This document shows, piece after piece, positions 2,861-30,728 of a DNA stretch of 64,000 nucleotides. The position numbers and the translations under genes were made by a program. The notes beneath the pieces were generated by a model, which was not told where the DNA came from, ran no database searches, and saw nothing but the letters and a program-made list of their open reading frames with translations. Position 1 is the first letter of the stretch. Every line of letters starts with the position of its first letter. The DNA is from Ecdyonurus torrentis (lineage: Eukaryota > Arthropoda > Insecta > Ephemeroptera > Heptageniidae), in the NCBI GenBank assembly GCA_949318235.1, contig OX439131.1:13231700-13295699 (forward strand). Reading direction: 5' to 3'.

Positions 2861-5800
2861 GTCAGCTTTTTATTCCTCAATATAGATTAGTGGAGGAATC
2901 GTCTGTAAAAAGCCACTACGTGTATGTTGTAGAAATTTTGCACTGTGGCAAACGACACACTATAGAGAAACGTTACAGTGCGTTTCATTCATTGCATCGC
3001 GAGGTAAGTTGGAAGGCAATAATATTTATACAAATAAAATTTTAATGTTTGTTTATTACTTGATTTTTTTTCAGCTGAGAAAGCACTACACTACTCCTCT
3101 ATTTCCTCCTAAGCGAGTACGTAATTCTCACCCTAAAGTATTGGAACAACGAAGACTTGGACTAGAGAGATATCTACAGGAAATGATCAAGTATTGCCCT
3201 ACAAGAAAACGAGTATTGACATTCTTTGGGCTCCATCCTCAGCACGGAAGCACTGAGTAAGACTCCATAATAATAATAAATCCTACTGTTGTGACGTAGC
3301 GGCTTTTGGGGGTTGGTAGAAATGATGGGGGGCGAGCCTTGGACTCGTGGTTGTCTAGAAGTGAAGGTCTCTGCAGCCCCATCATTGGTGGTGGAAGGCT
3401 CATCTTGCATCTTAGAGATATGATATCAAAACCACCGCGTCACAGATTTTAACTATTGATACTATAGAAGTGGTAGTTTCTTAGAAATCTACCACTTCAA
3501 TGAATTTTTTGAAGTTTTAAGTGTTGAATTGTAGACTATTAGTTAATTAGCTATCAATAGAAAAAATCATAATTTAAACTACTTTGACTATTTTTGGTCA
3601 TATTCGGTAAATATTATTAATTAAGCATTAATAATATTTAAATTAATCAATAATTGATAAAGACCTGCAATTTCTTTTATTGACTAATTTTGATGTTGAT
3701 TATCATATGATGCTGTTCTATTGACTATTAAAACCTTTAACCACCAACTTCAACTCGGTTTATTTTAACAATCAATTTCATATGATATTATGACCAAGTA
3801 TTTAATTACGAAGATTTTATTATAAAATAAATAGCCAAAAAGCTTAAATTATAAAATCAGTAAATTTAGTGTAAGTTAAAATTAATTAAAATTAACTTAA
3901 TATTATCATAAGGTTCTATCAGGTAAAATAGGAAATGCACAAAATTTCTGTTTGAAGTATATGTTTGTAAAGAAAACATATTATATTTTAATTGTCACAA
4001 ATATTTAGGATACAGTCTTATACATTGAAATGTTGAACAAAAATAATATTTTTATAAATATAAAATTTAAATGTTCAAATTTGGTAATAATTAATAAATA
4101 ATAAACACCTAAAAATATTTTATTATTAATTATTAATTGCATGAAAATTGGAAAACAATGGATTATATGAATTAATTTTTTGTATGATTACTATTGAATT
4201 TAATTGAAGCCAAAAATTGTAAATTATTGAATGTCAAACTATTGAATTATATTTTGTCACGCTCCATCATGACATCGCCATTATATTATTTTCTGCCACC
4301 ACTTGGCTCTACTTTCCATTACAGTATTACATATACCCCATGTTATGCAATACTATAAAAATGCAACCACCATTAACTCAATCCGCCACCGCTTGGCTAT
4401 AACCTCGCTTATATAACATTGCATATCCCCATATTACAATATTATATAAAAACAACCACCATTAACTCGTTCCGCCTCCACTTGGCTCTTCTCGTATATA
4501 ATACCGCCATCCACTCGAAAAATGACAATATTATAAACTGGCAACCACTTTTATTTCTTCCCACCTCCACTTGGCGCTACCGTCGACTTAACTATCAAAA
4601 CTAGTAAATTAATTTTGACCACCACTGTACTTTGCCTCTCAGACAAGAGATGTTTCCCCCACTCCATATTGCACAAAAAGCCAAAAAATCTCAACTCCTT
4701 TTAAATTTTAACTATTGTCCTTCTGTATAAAATTTAATATAATATACAGGCATGATGAAATAACGACCAATTTATCCTTTAACAACCACCAATTAATTAA
4801 CCACTTGACCGTTCATCATAATTACTCCTCGCCCTGAATGTGATGTTAATACTTGACAATATTACCAGGGTAAGTTAAGTATTCAAACTTACAAAGGTTA
4901 CTCCTCTCCCTGAATGAAATGTTAATACTTGATAATATTTCTATAGTAAGTTAAGTATTCAAACTTACCAAAGGAGTCTGATTCGTCTCTATTTTACTCC
5001 ATTAAAATAAAGATCGCAGCTGAGAATGTACGCTTTGCCCTTCTGGGGAGCCATACAGGGTCTTACCCACTTGTTCACCACGACTCACTTAACATGGCCG
5101 TGATCAAGCCTTAAGAGTAAAATATTTCTCCAGAATCATCCCCTCTCAATGACTCTGGACCAATCATGACGCTCTTTGAGGGTGAAACGTCACGACTACC
5201 TCCCTCTCTCTTTCAGCTTGACTGCCATGATTAAAATTTTAGAATTTTAAGAACAAAATAATTTTACTTGAAAATATTAAAAAAAAATAAAAATAATCCA
5301 TTGGTTTTGCTATATAACATATAAAAAATGCTAATTTTTCGGTTAAAATTATTATTGAAAAATGACATGCACTATTTCCCAAAATACAGTAATTAAAAAT
5401 ATATGACATTATTGAAATAATTTATTTTAATAATAATTAATGTTTTGAAATATTATAATACTTGTTTAATAATTTAAATGTTCTCAATATTTCAAAATGA
5501 ACCATTAAACAAGCAAAATAAATTATAAATTTATTGGCAAAGAAAAATATAACAATATTGAAACATGTTGCATTAAATGACCATCAAATTATTTCAATAA
5601 TATCAATATAAAACCAAAATTTAATAAAATTATAAGTTTGGAAGTGACAATAAAACATATTTTAACCTATACTGAAATATTATGACTTTTGTGTGCTTGA
5701 ACGTTGTGAAATTAAATGAAAAACTGATGATTTTTAATATTAAATAAAAAATAGAAAAATAAATAATTTTAATTCTTGTATGCTTTACTATGCATAAAAA

Positions 5801-8800
5801 ATGCAATGTTAAATTTTAAGCTACTTATAAGCGTTCAAGGACACAAAAATCACACCAAAAATCTGACGGCTGCATAAAAAATCTAATCTCCCCTAGCTAA
5901 AACTGCATTTTTCTACCCCCTTCTCCTAAGAAATAAGGCCATGTGTTTTGGAGACAAAAACTCTCTTGTGCTCGTGATTTTCTCAAGCAACTCGCCCGCC
6001 TCACTCACTTTACCCCATAGCAACCCCTTTCCACCAATCAGTGCTATGGACCAAAATGCATACAAAATGCACTATGTAAAATAATTTTAATTAACTTTCT
6101 CTCTCACTTAAAGTCAATAAAAATTCACACACAATCCAAAATATATGAGATTTGAATATGATAATATGCATATAGGTGATATGTACTATTTAACTGTGCT
6201 CCTTTCCCCTTTATTATTCACAGTAAATATGCAACAGTTTGTTTTGAGAACCAAATCTTCAATCAAACAAACCCACTTTTAATTACTTTTTTAATCACTC
6301 AGAAATCTCATTTCATGAGTTTAACAACCACCATTACTTATTGTTCTCATTTACTATACCAAACTGTGCTCATATGCATATTTAATTTCAGATATTCGGC
6401 CTCAAATAAGCCAAATACTATGTAAAAATAAATTTTATTATAGCCTTTGTTTACCCACAACACCCACCAAAATATGACGCTAACTTCACATTTAAATGAT
6501 TACATACCTATATAATATTTATGCTTACGTGTAATCTCCAGCCGTGCAGAATTACTTCTTATATTGATTAAATACACTAAAACAGGTCCAGTATGTGATA
6601 AAACGGACCCAAATTACACATACAAAAGAACTTCTCAAAACATCAACAAACGCGATCTATTCTCAAGTAAAATACTTGAGAAATTTTCGACGCCGCAATC
6701 AAAACTCGGCCGCGAACTTTTAAAAATAAAATTACTTGAGGGGCGTTTCCCCATATGTTATAATATCCACCCCATAAAAAACAAAAAAGAAAAAGAGAAA
6801 AAAGAAAAAAGGCGAAGTTACTCGGGTTTGTTGATTTTTTGAGAAATTTTACAAAGATTAGATTATAATTACGAAATGTTGATTGAAGATCTCTGCTGTG
6901 TGTTTCTATTTCTTGATGCCTCGGAAAGAACTGTTCCAGAAAGTCCAACCTCCAGGTCCAAACTTTCGGAAACATTGTAGATGATGGACGGCCTCTTGAA
7001 TGTCCTGCATTGAGTATGATGTAACCCAATCAATCCCACGCTGATCCCAATCGGTAGAAGCAACTGTCACTAAACGCTGCTGGGCACCCTCTGGAATTGT
7101 AGATTCTTGTAGATCTGTGTGTTTGGATGATCCTGCTAAAAGAACAGGATTAATATTTTTGCCTTCCAACTGACAAGTCATATCCTCCATTGAATTTTCT
7201 GATTCTTCTGAAACATTATTATTGTGAACCTCCCTTAATGTATCAGATGATATTTTTATTAATTTTTGCATACTATTTTTTAATATTTTAGTTGTGAATT
7301 CTAATTTTCGACTTATCAGACAGATTTCCTCCTTTGTTGTTGAATCACTGAACATTAGGTTAAAGCTAATTATTTTTTGTAATAAAAAGAAATTTTGAAA
7401 TAGCATGATATTATCTAAATTTTTGGAATTTTTTAGAAAAGAATGCAAACCATCATGAGTAATTTTATTAAAGTCTGATAGTGATAAATTAAATTTATTA
7501 ATAATAACGCGATTCTCTTTTTCTGAATCAGCCATTATTAAAATTTATAAAGTAGTATTGAATGAAGATCTTTGCAGATTGGCGATTTTTCCTTCCAACT
7601 CACACTTTCCACGGGATGATGCTTAAACAAAATAAAAATTGTGTTTGGCCTTACACAAAAATTTCTTCTACATAAACATCATTGATATAGTTTTATAAAG
7701 GTGTTTTGTGAAAGTTAAAAATTTTCAAAACTGTTTTTTGTGACATTTAAAAATTTTTTGAAGTTGGATTTTGATAGAACCTTTTTGATTGAACAAATAA
7801 ATGACTATTGTTCAACCGGAAGTTGTTTAGCCGAGCCCCCAACTGTGACGTAGCGGCTTTTGGGGGTTGGTGGAAATGATGGGGGGCGAGCCTGGGACTC
7901 GTGGTTGTCTGGAAGTGAAGGTCTCTGCAGCCCCATCATTGGTGGTGGAAGGCTCATATTGTGTCTTAGAGATATGATATCAAAACCACCGCGTCACAGA
8001 TTTTAACTATTGATACTATAGAAGTGGTAGTTTCTTAGAAATCTACCACTTCAATGAATTTTTTGAAGTTTTAAGTGTTGAATTGTAGACTATTAGTTAA
8101 TTAGCTATCAATAGAAAAAATCATAATTTAAACTACTTTGACTATTTTTGGTCATATTCGGTAAATATTATTAATTAAGCATTAATAATATTTAAATTAA
8201 TCAATAATTGATAAAGACCTGCAATTTCTTTTATTGACTAATTTTGATGTTGATTATCATATGATGCTGTTCTATTGACTATTAAAACCTTTAACCACCA
8301 ACTTCAACTCGGTTTATTTTAACAATCAATTTCATATGATATTATGACCAAGTATTTAATTACGAAGATTTTATTATAAAATAAATAGCCAAAAAGCTTA
8401 AATTATAAAATCAGTAAATTTAGTGTAAGTTAAAATTAATTAAAATTAACTTAATATTATCATAAGGTTCTATCAGGTAAAATAGGAAATGCACAAAATT
8501 TCTGTTTGAAGTATATGTTTGTAAAGAAAACATATTATATTTTAATTGTCACAAATATTTAGGATACAGTCTTATACATTGAAATGTTGAACAAAAATAA
8601 TATTTTTATAAATATAAAATTTAAATGTTCAAATTTGGTAATAATTAATAAATAATAAACACCTAAAAATATTTTATTATTAATTATTAATTGCATGAAA
8701 ATTGGAAAACAATGGATTATATGAATTAATTTTTTGTATGATTACTATTGAATTTAATTGAAGCCAAAAATTGTAAATTATTGAATGTCAAACTATTGAA

Positions 8801-11800
8801 TTATATTTTGTCACGCTCCATCATGACATCGCCATTATATTATTTTCTGCCACCACTTGGCTCTACTTTCCATTACAGTATTACATATACCCCATGTTAT
8901 GCAATACTATAAAAATGCAACCACCATTAACTCAATCCGCCACCGCTTGGCTATAACCTCGCTTATATAACATTGCATATCCCCATATTACAATATTATA
9001 TAAAAACAACCACCATTAACTCGTTCCGCCTCCACTTGGCTCTTCTCGTATATAATACCGCCATCCACTCGAAAAATGACAATATTATAAACTGGCAACC
9101 ACTTTTATTTCTTCCCACCTCCACTTGGCGCTACCGTCGACTTAACTATCAAAACTAGTAAATTAATTTTGACCACCACTGTACTTTGCCTCTCAGACAA
9201 GAGATGTTTCCCCCACTCCATATTGCACAAAAAGCCAAAAAATCTCAACTCCTTTTAAATTTTAACTATTGTCCTTCTGTATAAAATTTAATATAATATA
9301 CAGGCATGATGAAATAACGACCAATTTATCCTTTAACAACCACCAATTAATTAACCACTTGACCGTTCATCATAATTACTCCTCGCCCTGAATGTGATGT
9401 TAATACTTGACAATATTACCAGGGTAAGTTAAGTATTCAAACTTACAAAGGTTACTCCTCTCCCTGAATGAAATGTTAATACTTGATAATATTTCTATAG
9501 TAAGTTAAGTATTCAAACTTACCAAAGGAGTCTGATTCGTCTCTATTTTACTCCATTAAAATAAAGATCGCAGCTGAGAATGTACGCTTTGCCCTTCTGG
9601 GGAGCCATACAGGGTCTTACCCACTTGTTCACCACGACTCACTTAACATGGCCGTGATCAAGCCTTAAGAGTAAAATATTTCTCCAGAATCATCCCCTCT
9701 CAATGACTCTGGACCAATCATGACGCTCTTTGAGGGTGAAACGTCACGACTACCTCCCTCTCTCTTTCAGCTTGACTGCCATGATTAAAATTTTAGAATT
9801 TTAAGAACAAAATAATTTTACTTGAAAATATTAAAAAAAAATAAAAATAATCCATTGGTTTTGCTATATAACATATAAAAAATGCTAATTTTTCGGTTAA
9901 AATTATTATTGAAAAATGACATGCACTATTTCCCAAAATACAGTAATTAAAAATATATGACATTATTGAAATAATTTATTTTAATAATAATTAATGTTTT
10001 GAAATATTATAATACTTGTTTAATAATTTAAATGTTCTCAATATTTCAAAATGAACCATTAAACAAGCAAAATAAATTATAAATTTATTGGCAAAGAAAA
10101 ATATAACAATATTGAAACATGTTGCATTAAATGACCATCAAATTATTTCAATAATATCAATATAAAACCAAAATTTAATAAAATTATAAGTTTGGAAGTG
10201 ACAATAAAACATATTTTAACCTATACTGAAACATTATGACTTTTGTGTGCTTGAACGTTGTGAAATTAAATGAAAAACTGATGATTTTTAATATTAAATA
10301 AAAAATAGAAAAATAAATAATTTTAATTCTTGTATGCTTTACTATGCATAAAAAATGCAATGTTAAATTTTAAGCTACTTATAAGCGTTCAAGGACACAA
10401 AAATCACACCAAAAATCTGACGGCTGCATAATAAATCTAATCTCCCCTAGCTAAAACTGCATTTTTCTACCCCCTTCTCCTAAGAAATAAGGCCATGTGT
10501 TTTGGAGACAAAAACTCTCTTGTGCTCGTGATTTTCTCAAGCAACTCGCCCGCCTCACTCACTTTACCCCATAGCAACCCCTTTCCACCAATCAGTGCTA
10601 TGGACCAAAATGCATACAAAATGCACTATGTAAAATAATTTTAATTAACTTTCTCTCTCACTTAAAGTCAATAAAAATTCACACACAATCCAAAATATAT
10701 GAGATTTGAATATGATAATATGCATATAGGTGATATGTACTATTTAACTGTGCTCCTTTCCCCTTTATTATTCACAGTAAATATGCAACAGTTTGTTTTG
10801 AGAACCAAATCTTCAATCAAACAAACCCACTTTTAATTACTTTTTTAATCACTCAGAAATCTCATTTCATGAGTTTAACAACCACCATTACTTATTGTTC
10901 TCATTTACTATACCAAACTGTGCTCATATGCATATTTAATTTCAGATATTCGGCCTCAAATAAGCCAAATACTATGTAAAAATAAATTTTATTATAGCCT
11001 TTGTTTACCCACAACACCCACCAAAATATGACGCTAACTTCACATTTAAATGATTACATACCTATATAATATTTATGCTTACGTGTAATCTCCAGCCGTG
11101 CAGAATTACTTCTTATATTGATTAAATACACTAAAACAGGTCCAGTATGTGATAAAACGGACCCAAATTACACATACAAAAGAACTTCTCAAAACATCAA
11201 CAAACGCGATCTATTCTCAAGTAAAATACTTGAGAAATTTTCGACGCCGCAATCAAAACTCGGCCGCGAACTTTTAAAAATAAAATTACTTGAGGGGCGT
11301 TTCCCCATATGTTATACTGTCGTTGCTTTCCTTCTTCCCCTATAAGAGATTGAGGTGTCACATGATACAGAGTATGTATGCGTACGTATGAAATGGCCAA
11401 TACATTTGACTTTTGTACGCACAGTAAATATATCATATTCCAATGTATGTATCTTATCCTTATCCCTTTCCCGCAAACTGCCGGACAGCAGTGATAAACT
11501 TAATGAAGTAATACGGTACTGATGGAAATATTAGTTCCATATACATATACCTAGCTATATCAAATGACGTAATATACATAGTAAACCTTACTTTGAATGT
11601 ATAGCTCTGGCCAAAAGTTCCCAAACAATTTGCATAGGCAACCCACAACTAGAGTACTCTAGAAGGGGGGAGTATACGCGCACCCTTTGTTGGGGTTTTT
11701 TGATCACGAAAAATCGCGTAAGTAATGGGAAAAATCGCGATTTTGAAACATCATAACTATTGAACAAAGGAAGTTACAGCATTGAAATTTTCACAGAACA

Positions 11801-14800
11801 AACTTCATTTTATGGCGATTTTATGTTTAAATTTTCAAAACTCTCAGTGTGTTATAAATTTAATTTATTTTAGCTTTAAAAATATCATATTTTGAAAATC
11901 AATACTCGACGCTCATTGGCTAATGCGCTCCAACAATGAAAAATAAAAAGTAAACAAACTCAACGCTCTTGTGCTTGCTGTCCACTGTTTATAAATACAC
12001 AACAAGTATACATACTTCGATTAAAAATGATAATCTCAAGTTTATATATCTTAAATTATTGTTTTAGTGTTATAACTTGAATCAATGTTTCTATTATTCT
12101 TAATATCTGTAAAAGAAAAAAAAATGAAATTATTTGATCAATATTTCATTAATAATTTAAAAGTTTATTATACATTATAATCAAAAAATAATAATTTGTT
12201 AAATTTTTAACATTTGATTTTTAACAACTCGACAAGTATTTATTAAAAATAGATTATTATTTCCTTTACTTTACATAATATACCATAGAAATGGAATTTT
12301 TTGCTATTTTGAGGAAACATTTTTATATACAGTCAACTATACGCATCAACTTAATAAAACTTGAGAGTTTGTTTTAACTTTTCTTTTAAAAGATACTATT
12401 TGTAAAATGCACTTATTGTGTAAGAAGTATACTTAATAAATTGAATACATTATTAATTCTTTTATGTAAATTAAAATTTACTTTATAATTTCTATAGAAA
12501 AAGCCATTTTCAATAGAAAGTCTGGACTCTGGCACAGTTTGGAAAGCTAAACTAAAGACTTTTGTTGTGTATACTAAATATTTAATTTTATTGCAATACA
12601 ATACTTATTAATAAAAGGTACTAATTCATTAAACACATGAAAAGGAAATATTATACATGAAAGAAATAAATACATTATTTGATGGTAAAATAAGATGATA
12701 AGAAATGTAGTTTCTCCCAATATAACATGTTGATTTTTATACCCCTGCAGTGAAGACTGGAGTTTTTGCAGAGAGATGTAGAATGTAGGCAAAATTAACT
12801 TTTCAGGGGTTCGGACCCGGACCCGAAACCTTCCAAAACCCGAGATTTTTGGCGGGTTTTTGGGACCCATTTGAAAAATACGGGTTCAAAAACCCGAGCC
12901 CTAATTTTCGTTGAGTTTGAAATTTTTTTGATTGAAATATTAAGAAATGTACATAAACATGAAAAAATATAAAGTAAGTTTGTTTAGTATTAGATTTTTT
13001 TTTTTTTTTTTTTTTTTTTGCCACAGAAACATAACATGCATACAACACAAATTTTAATTTGTTTAAATATCTGGAAAGATTTTTTATTTAAATTTTATTT
13101 TTTTAACTATGTGTAAGAGTAGGTTTTAGTCTAGTTATCCAGATTTTTATGCAATTTCAATAAAACCTTCTTTCTAAACTTTCAGTACGTTAAAAAAAAC
13201 TAAAAAAATTTTTTTTTTCAATTATATACCTCAAATTATGTTAAAAACATTATGTTCCGAAAGAAGAAAAATTAATATACGCCTGAATTATAAAGCTTGT
13301 AGGAGCTGCATTTTTTTAAAATTAATAATGTTGCTGACTTACAGCTTGTATGATGACTTTTTTTTATTATTATTATTTTATTAATATGAATATATACAGG
13401 CAATAATACTAAGTTTCTTATTTGGCTAATTGACAAGATGTAGCAAATCAAAACATTGATTATTTATTATTATTATTATTATTTGCATTCTTTTTTAACT
13501 TGCTGCAATTTTTTTAAATTCTATTTCAAAAAAATTTAATCTGCTCTTACTTATTGAACTTATAAAAAATTATTTAATTGATTAATTGAAAACCTGAACC
13601 CAGACCCGATGAAGATTTTTGAGGGGTCCGGACCCGGGTCCCGGACACGAAAAAAAAATCACGGGTCCAGGACTCGGGTCTTCCGACCCGACAATTTTTT
13701 GACGTGTCCGAACCTCTGGAACTTTCTACCTAAATATCTTTTTGAAAAACATATTAAAATATTTAGAGCCATATTCGACCGTCCATACTTTGGAAAAGTA
13801 CTAGAGCTCTGAATAGACGGTGAACCCGCGCGTGGTCCAAAAGTAGAGTTCAATATAAAACTTTCAATATCTCCTTGAGTTTGAGCGCTATTTAGATGCG
13901 CTATTTTACCTCTAGATAAGCAAGATGTTTAACCTTTTTGTCATGCCTATGCGATTTTCAACCCTTAGGTTTTTTTACCCTTCAAGGGTTAAAGACCAAA
14001 AACACGATTTTCAATATTATAACCTTTGCTATATGCTTTTATTTATTATTGTTATTATTATTTTTTGTGAATTTCATTTCTGTGGTGTCTGAAAGTCATG
14101 TAGTACCTCCTATTAAAACAATATGAAAAGAAATCTTTAAAAACCATGCCAATAGAAAATAGGGCGTAAAAATGATAAGAAAAAGAAGAAGAAGAAAAAA
14201 AAAAAAAAAAAAAAAAAAGGTAAATAACACGGAAAAGCAAAGCTTACCCAAAATAAATATTTGGTGCTGAAATCTTATTGCCAGGACCTTTCTCATAGGG
14301 CACATTGCGTTTTAGCTCTATATGACCCCCTGGAGGGTGTTTGGGGTGGGGTTTTCCACCCTATTATGATTCTAAAAACTTAAGTAAAAGTATTCGTGTC
14401 AGATATCGCTCTAGGCAAAATCGACCCCGCTGAGCTCGAATCCGTTGTCAGATTTTTGGTAGATGCCACCCCTAAGGAGATAGGGGTGGGTTTTTATCCT
14501 CAAAAGAGGTAAATTTTTGGAAAATAAAGCAACATTGAATTGTAATAAAATGCAATATTTTCGTTAATCTAATTGCATATTCCAGTACCTCTGGTATGTT
14601 TTTAACATGAATCCCATGCATTTCCAGTTTAAATCACTTTAAAGAGGGTAGCTGGGGTTGTTGTTTTTACCTTTTTTTCTAAATTGGGTGATTGGTAAGA
14701 TATCATTCTTAATTAAAGTAACCCAATCATTTAATTAAAAAAAATATAATAAAATAAAGGTGAAAAATGCACCCTGCAACCGTCTTTAAAGTGATATAAA

Positions 14801-17800
14801 CTGGAAATGCATAGGATTCATGTAAAAACATACCAGAGGTACTGGAATATGCAATTAGATTAACGAAAATATTGCATTTTATTACAATTTAATGTTGCTT
14901 TATTTTCCAAAAATTTCCCGGTTTTGAGAATAAAAACCCACCCCTATCGCCATAGGGGTGGCATCTACCAAAAATCTGACAACGGATTCGAGCTCAGCGG
15001 GGTCGATTTTGCCTAGAGCGATATCTGACACGAATACTTTTACTTAAGTTTTTAGAATCATAATAGGGTGGAAAACCCCACCCCAAACACCCTCCAGGGG
15101 GTCATATAGAGCTAAAACGCAATGTGCCCTATGAGAAAGGTCCTGGCAATAAGATTTCAGCACCAAATATTTATTTTGGGTAAGCTTTGCTTTTCCGTGT
15201 TATTTACTTTTTTTCTTTTTTTTTTTTTTTCTTCTTCTTCTTTTTCTTATCATTTTTACGCCCTATTTTCTATTGGCATGGTTTTTAAAGATTTCTTTTC
15301 GTATTGTTTTAATAGGATGTACTACATGACTTTCAGACACCACAGAAATGAAATTCACAAAAAATAATAATAATAAATAAAAAATAAAAGCATATAGCAA
15401 AGGTTATAATATTGAAAATCGTGTTTTTGGTCTTTAACCCTTGAAGGGTAAAAAAACCTAAGGGTTGAAAATCGCATAGGCATGACAAAAAGGTTAAACA
15501 TCTTGCTTATCTAGAGGTAAAATAGCGCATCTAAATAGCGCTCAAGCTCAAGGAGATATTCAACGTTTTATATTGAACGCTACTTTTGGACTACGCACGG
15601 GGTCACGGTCTATTCCGAGCTCTAAAGTATAGTACTTTTTCAAAGTATGGACGGTCGATGGCTCTAAATATTTTAAGATGTATTTCAAAAGATAATTACT
15701 AATTTAGGTAAAAAGTTTATTTTGCATACATTCTACATCTCTCTGCACACTCCAGTCTTCACTTCAGGGGTATAAAGATCATATTGGGAGAAACCGCATT
15801 TATTAATCATCTTATTTTGCCATGAAAATAGGGCGTAATTACATCATTCTATGCAATAAATGAAGAAGAAGAAAAAAAAAAAAAAAAAAAAAAGGTATAC
15901 GAATGATGAAAAGTTATTGTAAATAAAAAATAAACATTAATTAGTGCGGAGAAATAAGTAAAAACACGTGCAACTTATTAATTTTTGATCTATGTTTCGC
16001 GATCGAGCGTAGTTTCAAAAATCGACACTGCTGGTATAGAGATAAAAGATTAAATCTACTTTTATGCTAATTATTTTTATGAAAAAAAAAGCGCAAATTT
16101 CATTACTCTAGCTGGACTAGGGAAAAGGTTAAAAAAACGAGATGTTTCGTGTATATTATGCCTACTATATTTACGTAAAATCGATATACTGATGATGTTT
16201 TAATATCGATAAACAACCTAATTCCATATACTTATAAAGAAAACGTAATTTAATATCGCTTAAATCAAATTTATGAACATTTATAGTAAATATAATAAAA
16301 ATAAAACGATTTAAAAAAAATACTTGCCATTGTTATCACGATAATAGCTTCGTCAAAAATACAGCGTTTTCAAAAAAGCGTTCAAAATTGAACACTAAAT
16401 AACGGTATTTGCGAATTATTGCGACTTTTGAATTTATGTTATTTTTTTCGCCAAATAATAAAGTTTCATCTGTGAAAATTTCATAACTTGACAACGTTTA
16501 GGTACAATTTTATGAGTCTTCAAAATATCAGTTTTTCCCATTACTTACGGTCATTTTCAGAACCAAAAAACCCCCATTTAAATAACATTGACTGACAACA
16601 ATGAAAATTTTGGGCACGTCAGCCAATCAGATTTGAATATTCTCGATTTCAACAACCAATAAAATGGCTTTAAAAATTCTGCTGGATCGCGTATACTCCC
16701 CCCTTCTAGAGTACTCTACCCACAACCACACTATATATTATCTTTATGAGAAAACACAGCGGCTGCCGCTGCCCCCCCTAGCAAAAATTATCATTTGAAT
16801 TTTCAAAAAAATTATCAATTGATCTACACTCTGAATATCAATTGAAAATTGGGACTAATCTCCATTCATTTCAATGGTCGTTCCACTAAAATGAGTGGTG
16901 ATATCATCTCATTTTTACGGTCGATCCACTAAAATGAGTGGTGTTGTCATCTCATTTTTACGGTCGATCTACTAAAATGAGTGGTCATCACATCTCATTT
17001 TAATGGTTCAGATCATTCAAACGAAATGACAATGGTCCTTACATTCAATTGATATCCACGGTGTAGATCAATGATTTTTTTATGCCTCGCCATATGATTT
17101 GTTCGCCGCCGCTCCAGATTATTAGCATTCAATTTTTAGTATCTTTCTGATCTGCAACATATTAAATAATTTAAGTACATTATATTTTTATAAAATAAAA
17201 GAACATATTTGATTTAATTATAAAATGAATTTTTTTCGGTTTAGTGATCGGGGGGAACGCAGAAAAAGCTAAGGGTCCACTATAATTTAATACATACACA
17301 CTTTTTTTTTTTTTTTTTTTTTTTGACTTCAGAAAAAACTACATAACTGATTATAGAGAAATTAAATGAGAAATACTAGACATAGTTTTACGTGAGTAAA
17401 ACCAATGAATTGTTTCTCATTTTTTTCTAAAACCGACAACCTCCATTCACCATTCATTGAAATTTATTAAATTTCTAAACAATTTACATGCTAAAAAGAT
17501 ACAAATATCTTTTGTACAAATTTAAATATGACATTTATTTTTAAAAAATGTCAGATATATTTGTTAAAAATAAAAAATAACATACATGGGAAAAAAATGA
17601 AATTGTTATGTACCAAAACATTTTTTTTTTCGACATTAAATTGATTATTAAAATATAACCAGTACATTTTGTGACAATTTTGCGTAATAAATATTATTTT
17701 GCATTAAACTCACCTTAATATTATTCAAGAAACCTAGCTGTTTGGAGTAGTAAAAGCTCACACTCGATCAAACATCATGTTGCATAAAATTTATATTGGA

Positions 17801-19666: not shown

Positions 19667-19704
19667 TTAAAATTTCACGTTATAAAAAATCAAACATCGT
19701 CAAA

Positions 19705-22190: not shown

Positions 22191-22294
22191 GACCAACTCT
22201 TGGTTGTAGTGATTTTTCCCGTATATGCATATTCAAAAATTCCCGCAAAAAAAGGAGAATTTTAAAAAATTGAGACAAAGAACCGCAAAGAACT

Positions 22295-25200
22295 TATAAC
22301 ATATGGGGAAACGCCCCTCAAGTAATTTTATTTTTAAAATTTCGCGGTCGAGTTTTGATTGCGGCGTCGAAAATTTCTTAAGTATTTTACTTGAGAATAG
22401 ATCGCGTTTGTTGATGTTTTGAGAAGTTCTTTTGTATGTGTATTTTGGGTCCTTTTATCACATACTGGACCAGTTTTAGTGTATTTAATCAATATAAGAA
22501 GTAATGCTGCACGGCTGAAGATTATACGTAAGCATAAATAATAACTAGGTATGTAATCATTTAAATGTTAAGTTAGCGTCATATTTTGGTGGGTGTTGTG
22601 GGTAAACAAAGGCTATAAGAATTATTATTTTTTATAATATTTGGCTTACTTGAGGCCGAATATCTGAAATTAAGTATGCGTATGAGCACAGTTTGGTATA
22701 GTAAATGAGAACAATAAGTAATGGTGGTTGTTAAACTCATGAAATGAGATTTCTGAGTGATATAAAAAAGTAATTAAAAGTGGGTTTGTTTGGTTGAAGA
22801 TTTGGTTCTCAAAACAAACTGTTGCATATTTACTGTGAATAATAAAGGGGAAAGGAGCACAGTTAAATATTACATATCACCTATATGCATATTATCATAT
22901 TCAAATCTCATATATTTTGGATTGTGTGTGAATTTTTATTGACTTTAAGTGAGAGAGAAAGTTAATTAAAGTTATTTTACATAATACATTTTGTATGCAT
23001 TTTGGTCCATAGCACTGATTGGTGGAAAGGGGTTGCTATGGGGTACAGTGAGTGAGGCGGGCGAGTTGCTTGAGAAAATCACGAGCACAAGAGAGTTTTT
23101 GTCTCCAAAACACATGGCCTTATTTCTTAGGAGAAGGGGGTAGAAAAATGCAGTTTTAGCTAGGGGAGATTAGATTTTTTATGCAGCCGTCAGATTTTTG
23201 GTGTGATTTTTGTGTCCTTGAACGCTTATAAGTAGCCTAAAATTTAACATTGCATTTTTTATGCATAGTAAAGCATACAAGAATTAAAATTATTTATTTT
23301 TCTATTTTTTATTTAATATTAAAAATCATCAGTTTTTCATTTAATTTCACAACGTTCAAGCACACAAAAGTCCTAATATTTTAGTATAGGTTAAAATATG
23401 TTTTATGGTCACTTCCAAACTTATAATTTTATTAAATTTTGGTTTTATATTGATATTATTGAAATAATTTGATGGTCATTTAATGCAACATTTTTCAATA
23501 TTGTTATATTTTTCTTTGCCAATAAATTTATAATTTATTTTGCTTGTTTAATGGTTCATTTTGAAATATTGAGAACATTTAAATTATTAAACAAGTATTA
23601 TAATATTTCAAAACATTAATTATTATTAAAATAAATTATTTCAATAATGTCATATATTTTTAATTACTGTATTTTGGGAAATAGTGCATGTCATTTTTCA
23701 ATAATAATTTTAACCGAAAAATTAGCATTTTTTTTATATGTTATATAGCAAAACCAATGGATTATTTTTATTTTTTATATTTTCAAGTAAAATTATTTTG
23801 TTCTTAAAATTCTAAATTTTTAATCATGGCAGTCAAGTTGAAAGAGAGAGGGAGGTAGTCGTGACGTTTCACCCTCAAAGAGCGTCATGATTGGTCCAGA
23901 GTCATTGAGAGGGGATGATTCTGGAGAAATATTTTACTCTTAAGGCTTGATCACGGCCATGTTAAGTCAGTCGTGGTGAACAAGTGGGTAAGACCCTGTA
24001 TGGCTCCCCAGGAGGGCAAAGCGTACATTCTCAGCTGCGATCTTTATTTTAATGGAGTAAAATAGAGACGAATCAGACTCCTTTGGTAAGTTTGAATACT
24101 TAACTTACTATAGAAATCTTTTCAAGTATTAACATTACATACAGGGAGAGGAGTAACCTTTGTAAGTTTAAATACTTAGCTTACCCTGGTAATATTGTCA
24201 AGTATTAACATCACATTCAGGGCGAGGAGTAATTATGATGAACGGTCAAGTGGTTAATTAATTGGTGGTTGTTAAAGGATAAATTGGTCGTTATTTCATC
24301 ATGCCTGTATATTATATTAAATTTTATACAGAAGGACAATAGTTAAAATTTAAAAGGAGTTGAGATTTTTTGGCTTTTTGTGCAATATGGAGTGGGGGAA
24401 ACATCTCTTGTCTGAGAGGCAAAGTACAGTGGTGGTCAAAATTAATTTACTAGTTTTGATAGTTAAGTCGACGGTAGCGCCAAGTGGAGGTGGGAAGAAA
24501 TAAAGGTGGTTGCCAGTTTATAATATTGTCATTTTTCGAGTGGATGGCGGTATTATATACGAGAAGAGCCAAGTGGAGGCGGAACGAGTTAATGGTGGTT
24601 GTTTTTATATAATATTGTAATATGGGGATATGCAATGTTATATAAGCGAGGTTATAGCCAAGCGGTGGCGGATTGAGTTAATGGTGGTTGCATTTTTATA
24701 GTATTGCATAACATGGGGTATATGTAATACTGTAATGGAAAGTAGAGCCAAGTGGTGGCAGAAAATAATATAATGGCGATGTCATGATGGAGCGTGACAA
24801 AATATAATTCAATAGTTTGACATTCAATAATTTACAATTTTTGGCTTCAATTAAATTCAATAGTAATCATACAAAAAATAAATTCATATAATCCATTGTT
24901 TTCCAATTTTCATGCAATTAATAATTAATAATAAAATATTTTTAGGTGTTTATTATTTATTAATTATTACCAAATTTGAACATTTAAATTTTATATTTAT
25001 AAAAATATTATTTTTGTTCAACATTTCAATGTATAAGACTGTATCCTAAATATTTGTGACAATTAAAATATAATATGTTTTCTTTACAAACATATACTTC
25101 AAACAGAAATTTTGTGCATTTCCTATTTTACCTGATAGAACCTTATGATAATATTAAGTTAATTTTAATTAATTTTAACTTACACTAAATTTACTGATTT

Positions 25201-25763
25201 TATAATTTAAGCTTTTTGGCTATTTATTTTATAATAAAATCTTCATAATTAAATATTTGGTCATAATGTCATATGAAATTGATTGTTAGAATAAACCGAG
25301 TTGAAGTTGGTGGTTAAAGATTTTAATAGTCAATAGAACAGCATCATATGATAATCAACATCAAAATTAGTCAATAAAAGAAATTGCAAGTCTTTATCAA
25401 TTATTGATTAATTAGAATATTATTAATTCTTAATTAATAATATTTACCAAATATGACCAAAAATAGTCAAAGTAGTTTAAATTATGATTTTTTCTATTGA
25501 TAGCTAATTAACTAATAGTCTAAAAAGCAACATTAAAAACTTCAAATATTCACTGAAGTGGTAGATTTCAAAGAAACTATCACTTCCATAGTATCAATAG
25601 TTAAAATCTGTGACGCGGTGGTTTTGATATCATATCTCTAAGACACAATATGAGCCTTCCACCACCAATGATGGGGCTGCAGAGACCTTCACTTCCAGAC
25701 AACCACGAGTCCCAGGCTCGCCCCCCATCATTTCCACCAACCCCCAAAAGCCGCTACGTCACA
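22295..25763 (+). repeat. 5' LTR of copy 2 (3469 bp)
   Basis: It begins TATAACATATGGGG and ends CGCTACGTCACA. By eye it is identical or nearly so to 26841-30309. The 89-bp tandem array is at about 24470-24780. Confidence 0.9.
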
Positions 25764-25765
25764 GT

Positions 25766-25776
25766 TGGGGGCTCGG
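25766..25776 (+). other. Primer-binding site (tRNA-Pro-like), copy 2
   Basis: TGGGGGCTCGG, two bases after the LTR end, identical in sequence and spacing to copy 1. Confidence 0.75.
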
Positions 25777-26070
25777 CTAAACAACTTCCGGTTGAACATT
25801 TGTCATTTATTTGTTCAATCAAACAGGTTCTATCAAAATCCAACTTCAAAAAATTTTTAAATGCCACAAAAACAGTCTTAAAAATTTTTAACTTTCACAA
25901 AACACCTTTATAAAACTATATCAATGATGTTTATGTACAAAAAATTTTTGTGTAAGGCCAAACACAATTTTTATTTTGTTTAAGCATCATCCCGTGGAAA
26001 GTGTGAGTTGGAAAGAAAAATCGCCAACCTGCAAAGATCTTCATTCAATACTACTTTATAAATTTTAATA

Positions 26071-26697
26071 ATGGCTGATTCAGAAAAAGAGAATCGCGTT
26101 ATTATTAATAAATTTAATTTATCACTATCAGACTTTAATAAAATTACTCATGATGGTTTGCATTCTTTTCTAAAAAATTCCAAAAATTTAGATAATATCA
26201 TGCTATTTCAAAATTTCTTTTTATTACAAAAAATAATTAGCTTTAATCTAATGTTCAGTGATTCAACAACAAAGGAGGAAATCTGTCTGATAAGTCGAAA
26301 ATTAGAATTCACAACTAAAATATTAAAAAATAGTATGCATAAATTAAAAATAGCATCTGATACATTGTTGGAGGTTCAAAATAATAATGTTTCAGAAAAA
26401 TCAGAAAATTCAATGGAGGATATGACTTGTCAGTTGGAAGGCAAAAATATTAATCCTGTTCTTTTAGCAGGATCATCTAAACACACAGATCTACAAGAAT
26501 CTACAATTCCAGAGGGTGCCCAGCAGCGTTTAGTGACAGTTGCTTCTACCGATTGGGACCAGCGTGGGATTGATTGGGTTACATCATACTCAATGCAGGA
26601 CATTCAAGAAGCCGTACATCATCTACAATGTTTCCGAAAGTTTGGACCTGGAGGTTGGACTTTCTGGAACAGTTCTTTCCGAGGCAACAAGAAATAG
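26071..26697 (+). CDS. Sole ORF of the giant-LTR element, copy 2 (unknown family)
   Basis: 208 codons, collinear with the 209-aa ORF of copy 1. The differences cluster around codons 115-135, where copy 1 has an extra isoleucine and several substitutions; both ends are almost unchanged. The stop is followed by about 80 bases of pyrimidine-rich sequence, then AGGGGTGGATAT directly before the 3' LTR, the best available polypurine-tract candidate. No recognised domain. Confidence 0.7.
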   Translation: MADSEKENRVIINKFNLSLSDFNKITHDGLHSFLKNSKNLDNIMLFQNFFLLQKIISFNLMFSDSTTKEEICLISRKLEFTTKILKNSMHKLKIASDTLLEVQNNNVSEKSENSMEDMTCQLEGKNINPVLLAGSSKHTDLQESTIPEGAQQRLVTVASTDWDQRGIDWVTSYSMQDIQEAVHHLQCFRKFGPGGWTFWNSSFRGNKK

Positions 26698-26840
26698 AAA
26701 CACACAGCAGAGATCTTCAATCAACATTTCGTAATTATAAGCTAACCTTTGTAAAATTTCTCAAAAAATCAACAAACCCGAGTAACTTCGCCTTTTTTCT
26801 TTTTTCTCTTTTTCTTTTTTGTTTTTTTAGGGGTGGATAT

Positions 26841-29800
26841 TATAACATATGGGGAAACGCCCCTCAAGTAATTTTATTTTTAAAATTTCGCGGTCGAGTT
26901 TTGATTGCGGCGTCGAAAATTTCTTAAGTATTTTACTTGAGAATAGATCGCGTTTGTTGATGTTTTGAGAAGTTCTTTTGTATGTGTATTTTGGGTCCTT
27001 TTATCACATACTGGACCAGTTTTAGTGTATTTAATCAATATAAGAAGTAATGCTGCACGGCTGAAGATTATACGTAAGCATAAATAATAACTAGGTATGT
27101 AATCATTTAAATGTTAAGTTAGCGTCATATTTTGGTGGGTGTTGTGGGTAAACAAAGGCTATAAGAATTATTATTTTTTATAATATTTGGCTTACTTGAG
27201 GCCGAATATCTGAAATTAAGTATGCGTATGAGCACAGTTTGGTATAGTAAATGAGAACAATAAGTAATGGTGGTTGTTAAACTCATGAAATGAGATTTCT
27301 GAGTGATATAAAAAAGTAATTAAAAGTGGGTTTGTTTGGTTGAAGATTTGGTTCTCAAAACAAACTGTTGCATATTTACTGTGAATAATAAAGGGGAAAG
27401 GAGCACAGTTAAATATTACATATCACCTATATGCATATTATCATATTCAAATCTCATATATTTTGGATTGTGTGTGAATTTTTATTGACTTTAAGTGAGA
27501 GAGAAAGTTAATTAAAGTTATTTTACATAATACATTTTGTATGCATTTTGGTCCATAGCACTGATTGGTGGAAAGGGGTTGCTATGGGGTACAGTGAGTG
27601 AGGCGGGCGAGTTGCTTGAGAAAATCACGAGCACAAGAGAGTTTTTGTCTCCAAAACACATGGCCTTATTTCTTAGGAGAAGGGGGTAGAAAAATGCAGT
27701 TTTAGCTAGGGGAGATTAGATTTTTTATGCAGCCGTCAGATTTTTGGTGTGATTTTTGTGTCCTTGAACGCTTATAAGTAGCCTAAAATTTAACATTGCA
27801 TTTTTTATGCATAGTAAAGCATACAAGAATTAAAATTATTTATTTTTCTATTTTTTATTTAATATTAAAAATCATCAGTTTTTCATTTAATTTCACAACG
27901 TTCAAGCACACAAAAGTCCTAATATTTTAGTATAGGTTAAAATATGTTTTATGGTCACTTCCAAACTTATAATTTTATTAAATTTTGGTTTTATATTGAT
28001 ATTATTGAAATAATTTGATGGTCATTTAATGCAACATTTTTCAATATTGTTATATTTTTCTTTGCCAATAAATTTATAATTTATTTTGCTTGTTTAATGG
28101 TTCATTTTGAAATATTGAGAACATTTAAATTATTAAACAAGTATTATAATATTTCAAAACATTAATTATTATTAAAATAAATTATTTCAATAATGTCATA
28201 TATTTTTAATTACTGTATTTTGGGAAATAGTGCATGTCATTTTTCAATAATAATTTTAACCGAAAAATTAGCATTTTTTTTATATGTTATATAGCAAAAC
28301 CAATGGATTATTTTTATTTTTTATATTTTCAAGTAAAATTATTTTGTTCTTAAAATTCTAAATTTTTAATCATGGCAGTCAAGTTGAAAGAGAGAGGGAG
28401 GTAGTCGTGACGTTTCACCCTCAAAGAGCGTCATGATTGGTCCAGAGTCATTGAGAGGGGATGATTCTGGAGAAATATTTTACTCTTAAGGCTTGATCAC
28501 GGCCATGTTAAGTCAGTCGTGGTGAACAAGTGGGTAAGACCCTGTATGGCTCCCCAGGAGGGCAAAGCGTACATTCTCAGCTGCGATCTTTATTTTAATG
28601 GAGTAAAATAGAGACGAATCAGACTCCTTTGGTAAGTTTGAATACTTAACTTACTATAGAAATCTTTTCAAGTATTAACATTACATACAGGGAGAGGAGT
28701 AACCTTTGTAAGTTTAAATACTTAGCTTACCCTGGTAATATTGTCAAGTATTAACATCACATTCAGGGCGAGGAGTAATTATGATGAACGGTCAAGTGGT
28801 TAATTAATTGGTGGTTGTTAAAGGATAAATTGGTCGTTATTTCATCATGCCTGTATATTATATTAAATTTTATACAGAAGGACAATAGTTAAAATTTAAA
28901 AGGAGTTGAGATTTTTTGGCTTTTTGTGCAATATGGAGTGGGGGAAACATCTCTTGTCTGAGAGGCAAAGTACAGTGGTGGTCAAAATTAATTTACTAGT
29001 TTTGATAGTTAAGTCGACGGTAGCGCCAAGTGGAGGTGGGAAGAAATAAAGGTGGTTGCCAGTTTATAATATTGTCATTTTTCGAGTGGATGGCGGTATT
29101 ATATACGAGAAGAGCCAAGTGGAGGCGGAACGAGTTAATGGTGGTTGTTTTTATATAATATTGTAATATGGGGATATGCAATGTTATATAAGCGAGGTTA
29201 TAGCCAAGCGGTGGCGGATTGAGTTAATGGTGGTTGCATTTTTATAGTATTGCATAACATGGGGTATATGTAATACTGTAATGGAAAGTAGAGCCAAGTG
29301 GTGGCAGAAAATAATATAATGGCGATGTCATGATGGAGCGTGACAAAATATAATTCAATAGTTTGACATTCAATAATTTACAATTTTTGGCTTCAATTAA
29401 ATTCAATAGTAATCATACAAAAAATAAATTCATATAATCCATTGTTTTCCAATTTTCATGCAATTAATAATTAATAATAAAATATTTTTAGGTGTTTATT
29501 ATTTATTAATTATTACCAAATTTGAACATTTAAATTTTATATTTATAAAAATATTATTTTTGTTCAACATTTCAATGTATAAGACTGTATCCTAAATATT
29601 TGTGACAATTAAAATATAATATGTTTTCTTTACAAACATATACTTCAAACAGAAATTTTGTGCATTTCCTATTTTACCTGATAGAACCTTATGATAATAT
29701 TAAGTTAATTTTAATTAATTTTAACTTACACTAAATTTACTGATTTTATAATTTAAGCTTTTTGGCTATTTATTTTATAATAAAATCTTCATAATTAAAT

Positions 29801-30309
29801 ATTTGGTCATAATGTCATATGAAATTGATTGTTAGAATAAACCGAGTTGAAGTTGGTGGTTAAAGATTTTAATAGTCAATAGAACAGCATCATATGATAA
29901 TCAACATCAAAATTAGTCAATAAAAGAAATTGCAAGTCTTTATCAATTATTGATTAATTAGAATATTATTAATTCTTAATTAATAATATTTACCAAATAT
30001 GACCAAAAATAGTCAAAGTAGTTTAAATTATGATTTTTTCTATTGATAGCTAATTAACTAATAGTCTAAAAAGCAACATTAAAAACTTCAAATATTCACT
30101 GAAGTGGTAGATTTCAAAGAAACTATCACTTCCATAGTATCAATAGTTAAAATCTGTGACGCGGTGGTTTTGATATCATATCTCTAAGACACAATATGAG
30201 CCTTCCACCACCAATGATGGGGCTGCAGAGACCTTCACTTCCAGACAACCACGAGTCCCAGGCTCGCCCCCCATCATTTCCACCAACCCCCAAAAGCCGC
30301 TACGTCACA
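26841..30309 (+). repeat. 3' LTR of copy 2 (3469 bp)
   Basis: Directly repeated partner of 22295-25763; the outer end is defined by the AACT target duplication at 30310-30313. Confidence 0.9.
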
Positions 30310-30528
30310 AACTGATTAATTAAATGTTGTATTACATGCTACTTCTTCCTAAAACGCAATGATAATAATAATAACAGTTTTTCTTAATTATAATTAGTAA
30401 TTTTTAGTAAAATAGAAACACACAAAATTAATTTTTGACCTAAAGAAAAGGGGGCGTGTCGGGGTCGGGGGCGTATCTTATTGTATACAAACTTCACAAT
30501 CGGAGTAGTTTGGTCGGACTTTTATCAA

Positions 30529-30728
30529 NNNNNNNNNNNNNNNNNNNNNNNNNNNNNNNNNNNNNNNNNNNNNNNNNNNNNNNNNNNNNNNNNNNNNNNN
30601 NNNNNNNNNNNNNNNNNNNNNNNNNNNNNNNNNNNNNNNNNNNNNNNNNNNNNNNNNNNNNNNNNNNNNNNNNNNNNNNNNNNNNNNNNNNNNNNNNNNN
30701 NNNNNNNNNNNNNNNNNNNNNNNNNNNN
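30529..30728. other. 200-bp assembly gap with duplicated flanks
   Basis: A run of exactly 200 Ns. The same 18 bases, TGGTCGGACTTTTATCAA, lie directly on both sides (30511-30528 and 30729-30746). This looks like two contigs that overlap and were not merged, so the real gap may be zero. Reading frames that cross the Ns are artefacts. It sits just upstream of the AAGAB start, in the probable promoter or 5' UTR. Confidence 0.9.

What the first reader, a model, noticed from the sequence alone, without database searches (positions are those of the whole stretch)
3290..11316. A retrotransposon family that is 87% LTR: 3.47 kb LTRs around a 1.08 kb core with one small ORF
The repeat pairs have exactly equal length within each element (3473/3473 and 3469/3469). 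Each element has a perfect 4-bp target duplication (CTGT; AACT), and a tRNA-Pro-like primer site sits two bases inside the 5' LTR. Together these identify a real LTR retrotransposon. Yet there is no pol, and the LTRs dwarf the interior. TRIMs have short LTRs. LARDs have long LTRs and usually a long non-coding interior. An element with giant LTRs plus a conserved 209-aa ORF fits neither class well. The machinery that mobilises it is unknown.
Basis: partly seen in the sequence, partly recalled or inferred. Interest (0 to 1): 0.88.

Follow-up and report, generated by a model that had tools for sequence, protein, structure and literature searches.

The report
Giant-LTR parasite retrotransposon and its helper
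In what is probably a mayfly genome, a small mobile element that is nearly all 'long terminal repeat' looks like a parasite of a large gene-bearing retrotransposon in the same genome: both carry the same end signals and the same folded RNA segment, which they seem to have traded.

Summary
In detail: two LTR elements (3473/3473 and 3469/3469 bp LTRs, ~1.08 kb core, perfect 4-bp TSDs, a ~209-aa ORF, no pol). The host is probably a mayfly. Its 503-Mb assembly holds nine cores at eight loci; none lies beside pol, and the ORF is frameshifted in five of nine.

The 'unknown machinery' now has a strong candidate. Family C, at C4:17276222-17292930, is a 16.7-kb Ty3/gypsy element with gag, protease, RT, RNase H and integrase frames, a third ORF, and 4.0-kb LTRs. 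C and A share LTR termini, 4-bp TSDs, the start of the primer site, the polypurine-tract end, a U5 block, and a ~195-bp mid-LTR block holding a GTAAGT site. Otherwise LTRs and cores do not match, so A is not a simple deletion of C. The block folds into stems with compensatory changes. It has two alleles, each found in both families: 18 sites group by allele, 3 by family. That suggests recombination, as expected if the RNAs are co-packaged. One locus joins a C 5' LTR to an A core and 3' LTR within one TSD. Family B is also ~88% LTR.

Verdict: a helper-dependent element of a kind known from wheat, an animal variant. Mobilisation is inferred, not shown.

The parts
3290..6762 (-). E1 3' LTR (sense is minus), TATAAC...GTCACA
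6763..7843 (-). E1 core, 1081 bp
7844..11316 (-). E1 5' LTR
3286..3289 (.). E1 target-site duplication, CTGT
11317..11320 (.). E1 target-site duplication, CTGT
7832..7841 (-). E1 primer-binding site TGGGGGCTCG, 2 bp after the 5' LTR; the match to the tRNA-Pro 3' end is from recall
6763..6773 (-). E1 polypurine-tract end GGGGTGGATAT, preceded by a T-rich stretch
6906..7535 (-). E1 ORF, 209 aa, no Pfam family above cut-off
9517..9652 (-). leader block in E1 5' LTR, allele alpha, ends in the GTAAGT splice-donor-like site
4963..5098 (-). same leader block in E1 3' LTR
22295..25763 (+). E2 5' LTR, 3469 bp
25764..26840 (+). E2 core, 1077 bp
26841..30309 (+). E2 3' LTR, identical to the 5' LTR
22291..22294 (.). 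E2 target-site duplication, AACT
30310..30313 (.). E2 target-site duplication, AACT
25766..25775 (+). E2 primer-binding site TGGGGGCTCG
26071..26697 (+). E2 ORF, 208 aa
23956..24091 (+). leader block in E2 5' LTR, allele alpha
28502..28637 (+). leader block in E2 3' LTR
24473..24763 (+). four GCCAAGTGG(A/T)GG-type motifs at ~89-bp steps in the E2 5' LTR; similar repeats in E1; function unknown

Best explanation
Family A (E1, E2 and kin) is a non-autonomous Ty3/gypsy-type LTR retrotransposon. Inferred cycle: Pol II starts inside the giant LTR near the conserved leader block. The A RNA carries much the same folded leader, primer-site start, polypurine-tract end and LTR ends as family C, which has gag-pol. 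It is packaged, reverse transcribed and integrated by C's Gag, RT and integrase. Shown by sequence: the shared cis signals, the leader structure with compensatory changes, the two leader alleles each found in both families, the 4-bp TSDs, the recent insertions, and the absence of pol and (in 5 of 9 copies) of an intact ORF. Inferred: that the leader is a packaging/dimerisation and splice-donor region, that C's proteins act in trans, and that the alleles moved by template switching between co-packaged RNAs. The ~209-aa ORF is an accessory protein not needed in cis for amplification.
For: Partner found: the LTR search of the own genome led to C4:17276222-17292930, LTRs of 4012 and 4011 bp (304 bp of them compared, identical), interior 8686 bp, TSD AAAG on both sides; Pfam zf-CCHC, RVP, RVT_1, RT_RNaseH, Integrase_H2C2 and rve above cut-off, Retrotrans_gag below it; best solved relative Ty3 Gag-Pol. 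Shared signals: LTR start TATAACATATGGGG, 22-nt junction CCGCTACGTCACA|GTTGGGGGC, T-rich stretch plus G-rich end before TATAAC. Mid-LTR block 76% (A alpha, E 4e-30) to 84% (A beta, E 2e-52) identical to C; a U5 block ~84% over 71-75 bp. Structure: 36 pairs, 97.7% of cells paired, 7 pairs with two-sided changes (2 of 500 shuffles reach that; slid versions give 0-1). Allele exchange: A beta is 88.7% identical to C beta but ~77% to A alpha; four-way site patterns 18 by allele, 3 by family, 1 crossed. Hybrid L010: C-type 5' LTR, A core, A 3' LTR inside one ACGT TSD. Recency: 0 or 1 LTR differences at six of the seven loci with A-type LTRs on both sides.
Against: No RNA or transposition data. Only one C element with pol was read, and its frames were read in pieces, so its intactness as a whole is not shown. 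Its primer site matches A for GTTGGGGGC and then departs (CTGTC against TCGGC), so use of the same primer is not certain. The LTR hit list is a lower bound (40 of 55 candidates scored), so an autonomous family closer to A cannot be excluded; my searches to count C and B did not complete. Six related sequences is a small set for covariation, the structure came from the same alignment, and one of the five measures does not exceed its shuffles (further pair types, 124 of 500). The three family-type sites lie at columns 100, 108 and 127, so the 3' part of the block may follow family rather than allele. The L010 hybrid does not follow from normal reverse transcription, which makes both LTRs alike.
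Confidence: 0.83

Rival explanations
1. A is mobilised by another autonomous Ty3/gypsy family (not C, or several helpers); C merely shares ancestry and signals.
For: Only one C element with pol was read; primer sites of A and C diverge after 9 nt; other partial relatives of the LTR exist (C12:387644-389617, C48:176649, C26:5853843) and were not read.
Against: Leader alleles are shared between A and C and L010 joins C and A pieces; in the list of 47 LTR matches no two A-type LTRs lie close enough to enclose anything but the A core (40 of 55 candidates scored).
Confidence: 0.12
2. A is an ordinary internal-deletion derivative of an autonomous element with the same LTRs.
For: A common origin of non-autonomous LTR elements (recalled); LTR ends, PBS start and PPT end match C.
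Against: The A core has only chance-level hits (18-23 nt, E 0.009; protein E 0.9) to the five pieces covering C's interior, apart from the PPT/LTR junction; LTRs of A and C match only in blocks. Only family C was tested.
Confidence: 0.04
3. The 209-aa ORF drives A's own mobility by an unknown route.
For: Open in 4 of 9 copies; E1 against E2 has dN/dS 0.28; its C-terminal part has a relative elsewhere in the genome.
Against: Five of nine copies carry frameshifts that cut the ORF (91 or 118 aa) and have LTR pairs differing by 0 or 1 base, so they moved recently without an intact copy in cis; dN/dS against L010 is 0.55-1.32; no Pfam family above cut-off.
Confidence: 0.03
4. Artefact: assembly error or segmental duplication mistaken for transposition.
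For: The two window copies lie close together in inverted orientation; one copy elsewhere is a tandem LTR-core-LTR-core-LTR without a visible TSD (L012/L013).
Against: Eight loci on six contigs, seven with perfect 4-bp TSDs, each of a different sequence.
Confidence: 0.01

Closest known systems
RLG_Wilma (autonomous) with RLG_WHAM and RLG_Sabrina (non-autonomous), wheat, PMC9744471 (passages and section 13 read)
   Same: Hardly any shared sequence except LTR termini, primer site and one GC-rich LTR motif; helper inferred from these
   Different: Here an animal; the shared block folds as RNA and holds a splice-donor-like site, with two alleles found in both helper and parasite; the non-autonomous LTRs dwarf the core
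RLG_Cereba / RLG_Quinta, einkorn wheat, PMC11302176 (abstract and section list seen)
   Same: Pairing argued from LTR, PBS and PPT motifs; the non-autonomous member keeps an ORF
   Different: Quinta's protein is Gag; A's ORF has no recognisable Gag domain and is broken in 5 of 9 copies
LARDs such as Sukkula (PMC7215508, passages; sizes recalled)
   Same: No pol, dependence on a helper; long LTRs (recalled)
   Different: LARDs have a large non-coding core (recalled); here the core is 1.08 kb with an ORF in some copies
TRIMs, e.g. PbTRIM in an ant and bivalve TRIMs (search listing with abstract starts)
   Same: Short core, no gag-pol, helper-dependent, present in animals
   Different: TRIMs are small with short LTRs; here the LTR is 3.47 kb
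Non-autonomous pararetroviruses of grasses, PMC5491270 (abstract and section list seen)
   Same: Partnership kept by recombination that homogenises non-coding regulatory sequence
   Different: Pararetroviruses of plants, not LTR retrotransposons
Foamy viruses, PMC3694450 (passages seen)
   Same: Major splice donor inside the LTR (R region), with RNA structure affecting its use
   Different: An analogy only; no homology claimed

Membership tests
LTR retrotransposon | Paired LTRs, short TSDs, PBS and PPT | tested here: met
   TSD perfect at 7 of 8 core-bearing loci
LTR retrotransposon, Ty3/gypsy-dependent | An element with Ty3/gypsy gag-pol and matching ends and signals in the same genome | tested here: met
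   PBS region matches only for its first 9 nt
LTR retrotransposon, Ty3/gypsy-dependent | Actual trans-mobilisation by that element | not testable with these tools
   needs RNA, particle or insertion data
TRIM | Small element with short LTRs | tested here: not met
   LTR 3473 bp, element 8027 bp
LARD | No protein coding | tested here: inconclusive
   ORF open in 4 of 9 copies, broken in 5 of 9
LARD | Large core domain (size recalled) | tested here: not met
   core 1077-1081 bp in the nine copies
TR-GAG (name recalled) | ORF is a Gag | tested here: inconclusive
   no Pfam Gag in the ORF, none of 141 protein candidates at E<=1; the structure model was unusable, so a distant Gag is not excluded
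Internal-deletion derivative of family C | Core made of pieces of C's interior | tested here: not met
   chance-level hits only; similarity at the PPT/LTR junction

The most novel reading that the evidence does not exclude
The mid-LTR leader is a packaging/dimerisation 'passport' with at least two types (alpha, beta). Helper and parasite must match in type, and the parasite keeps up by copying the helper's current type through recombination. Giant LTRs are then the lineage's strategy: almost everything a parasite needs in cis (promoter, folded leader, in-LTR splice donor, integrase ends) sits inside the LTR, so the core is free to shrink or to carry an unrelated ORF, as in families A and B.
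Probability: 0.35. Interest if true: 0.72.

Novelty: new variant of a known kind. Interest (0 to 1): 0.57.

Why it matters
The helper-parasite pairs of LTR retrotransposons that my paper searches turned up in detail are from grasses. This gives an animal pair in which the shared signals are sharply delimited: short LTR ends, primer-site start, PPT end, a U5 block and one folded mid-LTR block, in otherwise unmatched sequence. The natural allele swap points to that block as a part that may have to match between parasite and helper, so it is a ready-made test of what an insect Ty3/gypsy Gag recognises in RNA. It also suggests why an element can be ~87% LTR.

Tried and rejected
Simple deletion of an autonomous element: tested with nucleotide and protein searches of C's interior pieces, rejected for C. 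A triple of C-type LTR blocks 12.3 kb apart on C11 looked like an autonomous element; the three pieces read there showed no pol-like frame and look like a tandem array of single LTRs; not all of the 12.3 kb was read. Structure prediction of the ORF failed (pLDDT 37.5, pTM 0.27), so no fold search was made. The weak Pfam hit Peptidase_A3 (E 0.006-0.015, below cut-off) is absent from the L010 variant and was dropped, as was a weak solved-structure hit (E 0.18). L021 and L022 (short core hits) show no match to A, B or C. Rfam gave nothing at gathering scores. One paper search gave 0 papers. Not completed: counts of families B and C, the primer-site pattern and an integrase-family search, because those genome searches did not complete.

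Rows dropped before counts: 7 of 16 matches were partial; 5 are family B, 2 are not elements. In one search, 40 of 55 candidates were scored by the tool and 47 matches listed; 21 cover the whole LTR query, 16 of them at core-bearing loci. In one search the tool listed 120 of 403 hits. In one search, 131 of 143 columns had no gap and were classified: 80 constant, 18 allele, 3 family, 1 crossed, 1 beta-only, 28 other. For dN/dS one codon was left out of E1 and L010 because E2 and L009 lack it; broken frames were not used.
Full report
Observation. The window holds two copies of one LTR element in opposite orientation: E1 (3290-11316, sense minus) and E2 (22295-30309, sense plus). E1: LTRs 3473/3473 bp with 8 substitutions; E2: 3469/3469 identical. 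Cores are 1081 and 1077 bp. TSDs are CTGT and AACT. The LTR runs TATAAC...GTCACA, with TA instead of the usual TG. The core starts GT + TGGGGGCTCG, a 10-nt match to the tRNA-Pro 3' end (tRNA sequence from recall), and ends in a T-rich stretch and GGGGTGGATAT.

Host. A sugar-phosphate transporter gene at 19600-20994 has its best hits with a named organism in the mayflies Neocloeon triangulifer (74%) and Cloeon dipterum (71%), and two better hits without organism names at 90% and 80%. The assembly is 503 Mb in 117 contigs. I infer a mayfly, species unknown.

Copies of family A. The core query gave 16 matches (16 of 16 candidates scored): 9 full-length cores at 8 loci, 5 loci matching only the PPT end, and 2 short hits that are not elements. 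TSDs are perfect at 7 of 8 loci: CTGT, AACT, GACT, ACTT, GCTC, CCCT, ACGT; the eighth, a tandem LTR-core-LTR-core-LTR, shows none. LTR pairs differ by 0 or 1 base at six of the seven loci with A-type LTRs on both sides, the tandem included, and by 8 in E1. In E1, 6 of the 8 differences cluster at the U5 end, and its 3' LTR differs from that of L011 by 1; L011 in turn has this E1-like LTR but a core of the L014 type (5 differences). So copies are mosaics. Full-length LTR matches number 21, of which 16 belong to core-bearing loci; the other 5 have no second copy nearby in the list and may be solo LTRs (40 of 55 candidates scored, so a lower bound; their flanks were not read). In that list no two A-type LTRs are placed so as to enclose anything but the A core.

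The ORF. It is open in 4 of 9 copies (208-209 aa) and frameshifted in 5 of 9 (91 or 118 aa), and the broken copies have LTRs that differ by 0 or 1 base. Hence it is not needed in cis. E1 against E2 shows 6 synonymous and 7 nonsynonymous changes and one codon indel (dN/dS 0.28), E2 against L009 0 nonsynonymous; but against L010 the ratio is 0.55-1.32. Evidence for selection is therefore mixed. No Pfam match passes its cut-off. None of 141 protein candidates scored at E<=1. The structure model is unusable. Apart from the A copies, the only match in the genome (15 matches, 19 of 19 candidates scored) is to residues 133-195 (35%, E 1.3e-4): the C-terminal part of a 437-aa open frame at C26:25040735, which lies just before a LINE-like frame (Exo_endo_phos E 0.013, below cut-off).

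Family B. Five loci match only the PPT end of the A core. They have LTRs of about 2.2 kb (TATAAC...GTTATA) round a ~0.58-kb core with a ~100-aa frame holding a run of arginines; in L020 one LTR is interrupted. TSDs are clear in 3 of 5 (AGTT, CAAG, ATTA); L016 does not match in full and L020 was not settled. The LTR share is about 88%. Its primer region (GTGAGGGCCTGTC) differs from A and resembles C's (GTTGGGGGCCTGTC). So LTR-dominated elements recur in this lineage.

The autonomous-looking partner. Two LTR hits 12.7 kb apart on C4 belong to a 16,709-bp element: LTRs 4012 and 4011 bp, interior 8686 bp, TSD AAAG. Its pieces, read apart, show zf-CCHC, a retroviral protease, RVT_1, RT_RNaseH, Integrase_H2C2 and rve above Pfam cut-offs; Retrotrans_gag is below its cut-off. 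A third open frame after pol has no family above cut-off. Best solved relative: Ty3 Gag-Pol. Its nearest proteins are other gypsy-type pols (47-52% without organism names); the best hit with a named organism is from a mayfly, Ephemera danica, 42% (120 of 403 listed).

What A and C share. LTR start TATAACATATGGGG; the 22-nt junction CCGCTACGTCACA|GTTGGGGGC; a T-rich stretch plus a G-rich end before TATAAC; 4-bp TSDs; a mid-LTR block (A 1665-1854, 76-84% identical); and a U5 block (A 3302-3371, ~84%). Elsewhere BLAST finds no match between the A LTR and the C4 LTR; against the C-type LTR of L010 there are a few further weak, AT-rich hits (best E 2.6e-4, 69% over 124). The A core has only chance-level hits in C's interior, apart from the PPT/LTR junction, 84% over 77 bp against L010's A core. 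These are the kinds of criteria used for wheat Wilma/WHAM/Sabrina (PMC9744471, section 13 read).

The leader block. On six distinct sequences the block folds into five helices, 36 pairs; 97.7% of cells pair, 7 pairs change on both sides (2 of 500 shuffles reach 7), and structures slid by 1-3 columns give 0-1 such pairs; the number of further pair types does not stand out (13 against 11.8, 124 of 500). The 135-140-bp block ends in GGTAAGT, a splice-donor-like site. Limits: few sequences, related to one another, and a structure derived from the same alignment.

Allele exchange. Two alleles exist. Alpha is in E1, E2, L009, L011, L010's A LTR and, more distantly (81.5%), L010's C LTR. Beta is in L012, L013 and L014; L015 is 1 base from L014 over the whole LTR and is taken to be beta, though my listing of the motif scan did not show it (it printed at most six places per sequence). 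Beta is also in the C4 element. A beta and C beta are 88.7% identical, A alpha and A beta ~77%, the two C alleles 70%, although A alpha and A beta LTRs differ by only about 4% over their whole length. Of four-way informative sites 18 support allele grouping (17 of them in columns 22-86), 3 family grouping (columns 100, 108, 127), 1 the crossed one. Recombination between A and C is the simplest reading, and co-packaging of their RNAs is the natural setting. L010 is a further link: a 4040-bp C-type 5' LTR (96% to C4 over its last ~2.15 kb, 84% over the first ~2.1 kb) joined to an A core and A 3' LTR inside one ACGT TSD. How such unequal LTRs arose is unexplained; later gene conversion of one LTR is possible.

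Mechanism. Inferred: transcription from the LTR middle, a long R-U5 with folded leader and donor, packaging by C's Gag, priming just after the LTR, integration by C's integrase on the shared ends. Foamy viruses offer a precedent for a major splice donor inside the LTR (PMC3694450, passages). Untested: transcription start, splicing, packaging, primer identity.

Novelty. Helper-parasite LTR pairs are known in grasses (PMC9744471, PMC11302176), and recombination that homogenises regulatory sequence is known for plant pararetroviruses (PMC5491270, abstract). Eight paper searches showed me no described mayfly or other animal family with this layout in their listings; that is a limited search of open papers only. 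I rate it a new variant of a known kind.

Mended: the ~195-bp block holds, rather than ends in, GTAAGT; the PPT-end similarity of A and C comes, not 97; the shuffle measure that does not stand out, the weak LTR hits and the family-type sites were added; L015's allele is marked as inferred; the TR-GAG row was lowered to inconclusive.

Noticed in passing
window 13731-15698: A ~2-kb inverted repeat of itself (93% over 1994 aligned bases), a large palindrome between E1 and E2.
   Followed up: no
L023:7065 to L010:8455 (C11:21543064-21551654): Element with two different LTRs (C-type 4040 bp, A-type 3470 bp) inside one ACGT target duplication; not expected from reverse transcription.
   Followed up: partly
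C11:47500736, 47513004, 47525289 (L024-L026): C-type LTR blocks repeated at 12.3-kb steps, apparently a tandem segmental array.
   Followed up: partly
L034:86-1396 (C26:25039685-25040995): 437-aa open frame whose C-terminal part resembles the A ORF (DW..WV..YS...QEAVH.L), just before a LINE-like frame.
   Followed up: partly
L012/L013 (C26:40557854-40570379): Tandem LTR-core-LTR-core-LTR array of family A, copies nearly identical, no TSD seen.
   Followed up: partly
L017:4333-4671 and other B cores: Short frame with an arginine-rich stretch (RRRRNFWRRN), loosely like an RNA-binding motif; no Pfam match above cut-off.
   Followed up: partly
window 7780-7960: U5 end and primer site can pair (CCCCCAA with TTGGGGG); the 181-nt stretch folds better than all 200 shuffles.
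   Followed up: partly
window 30529-30728: 200-base run of N close to the right end of E2.
   Followed up: no
window 18632-19048: 113-bp tandem repeat, about 3.7 copies.
   Followed up: no
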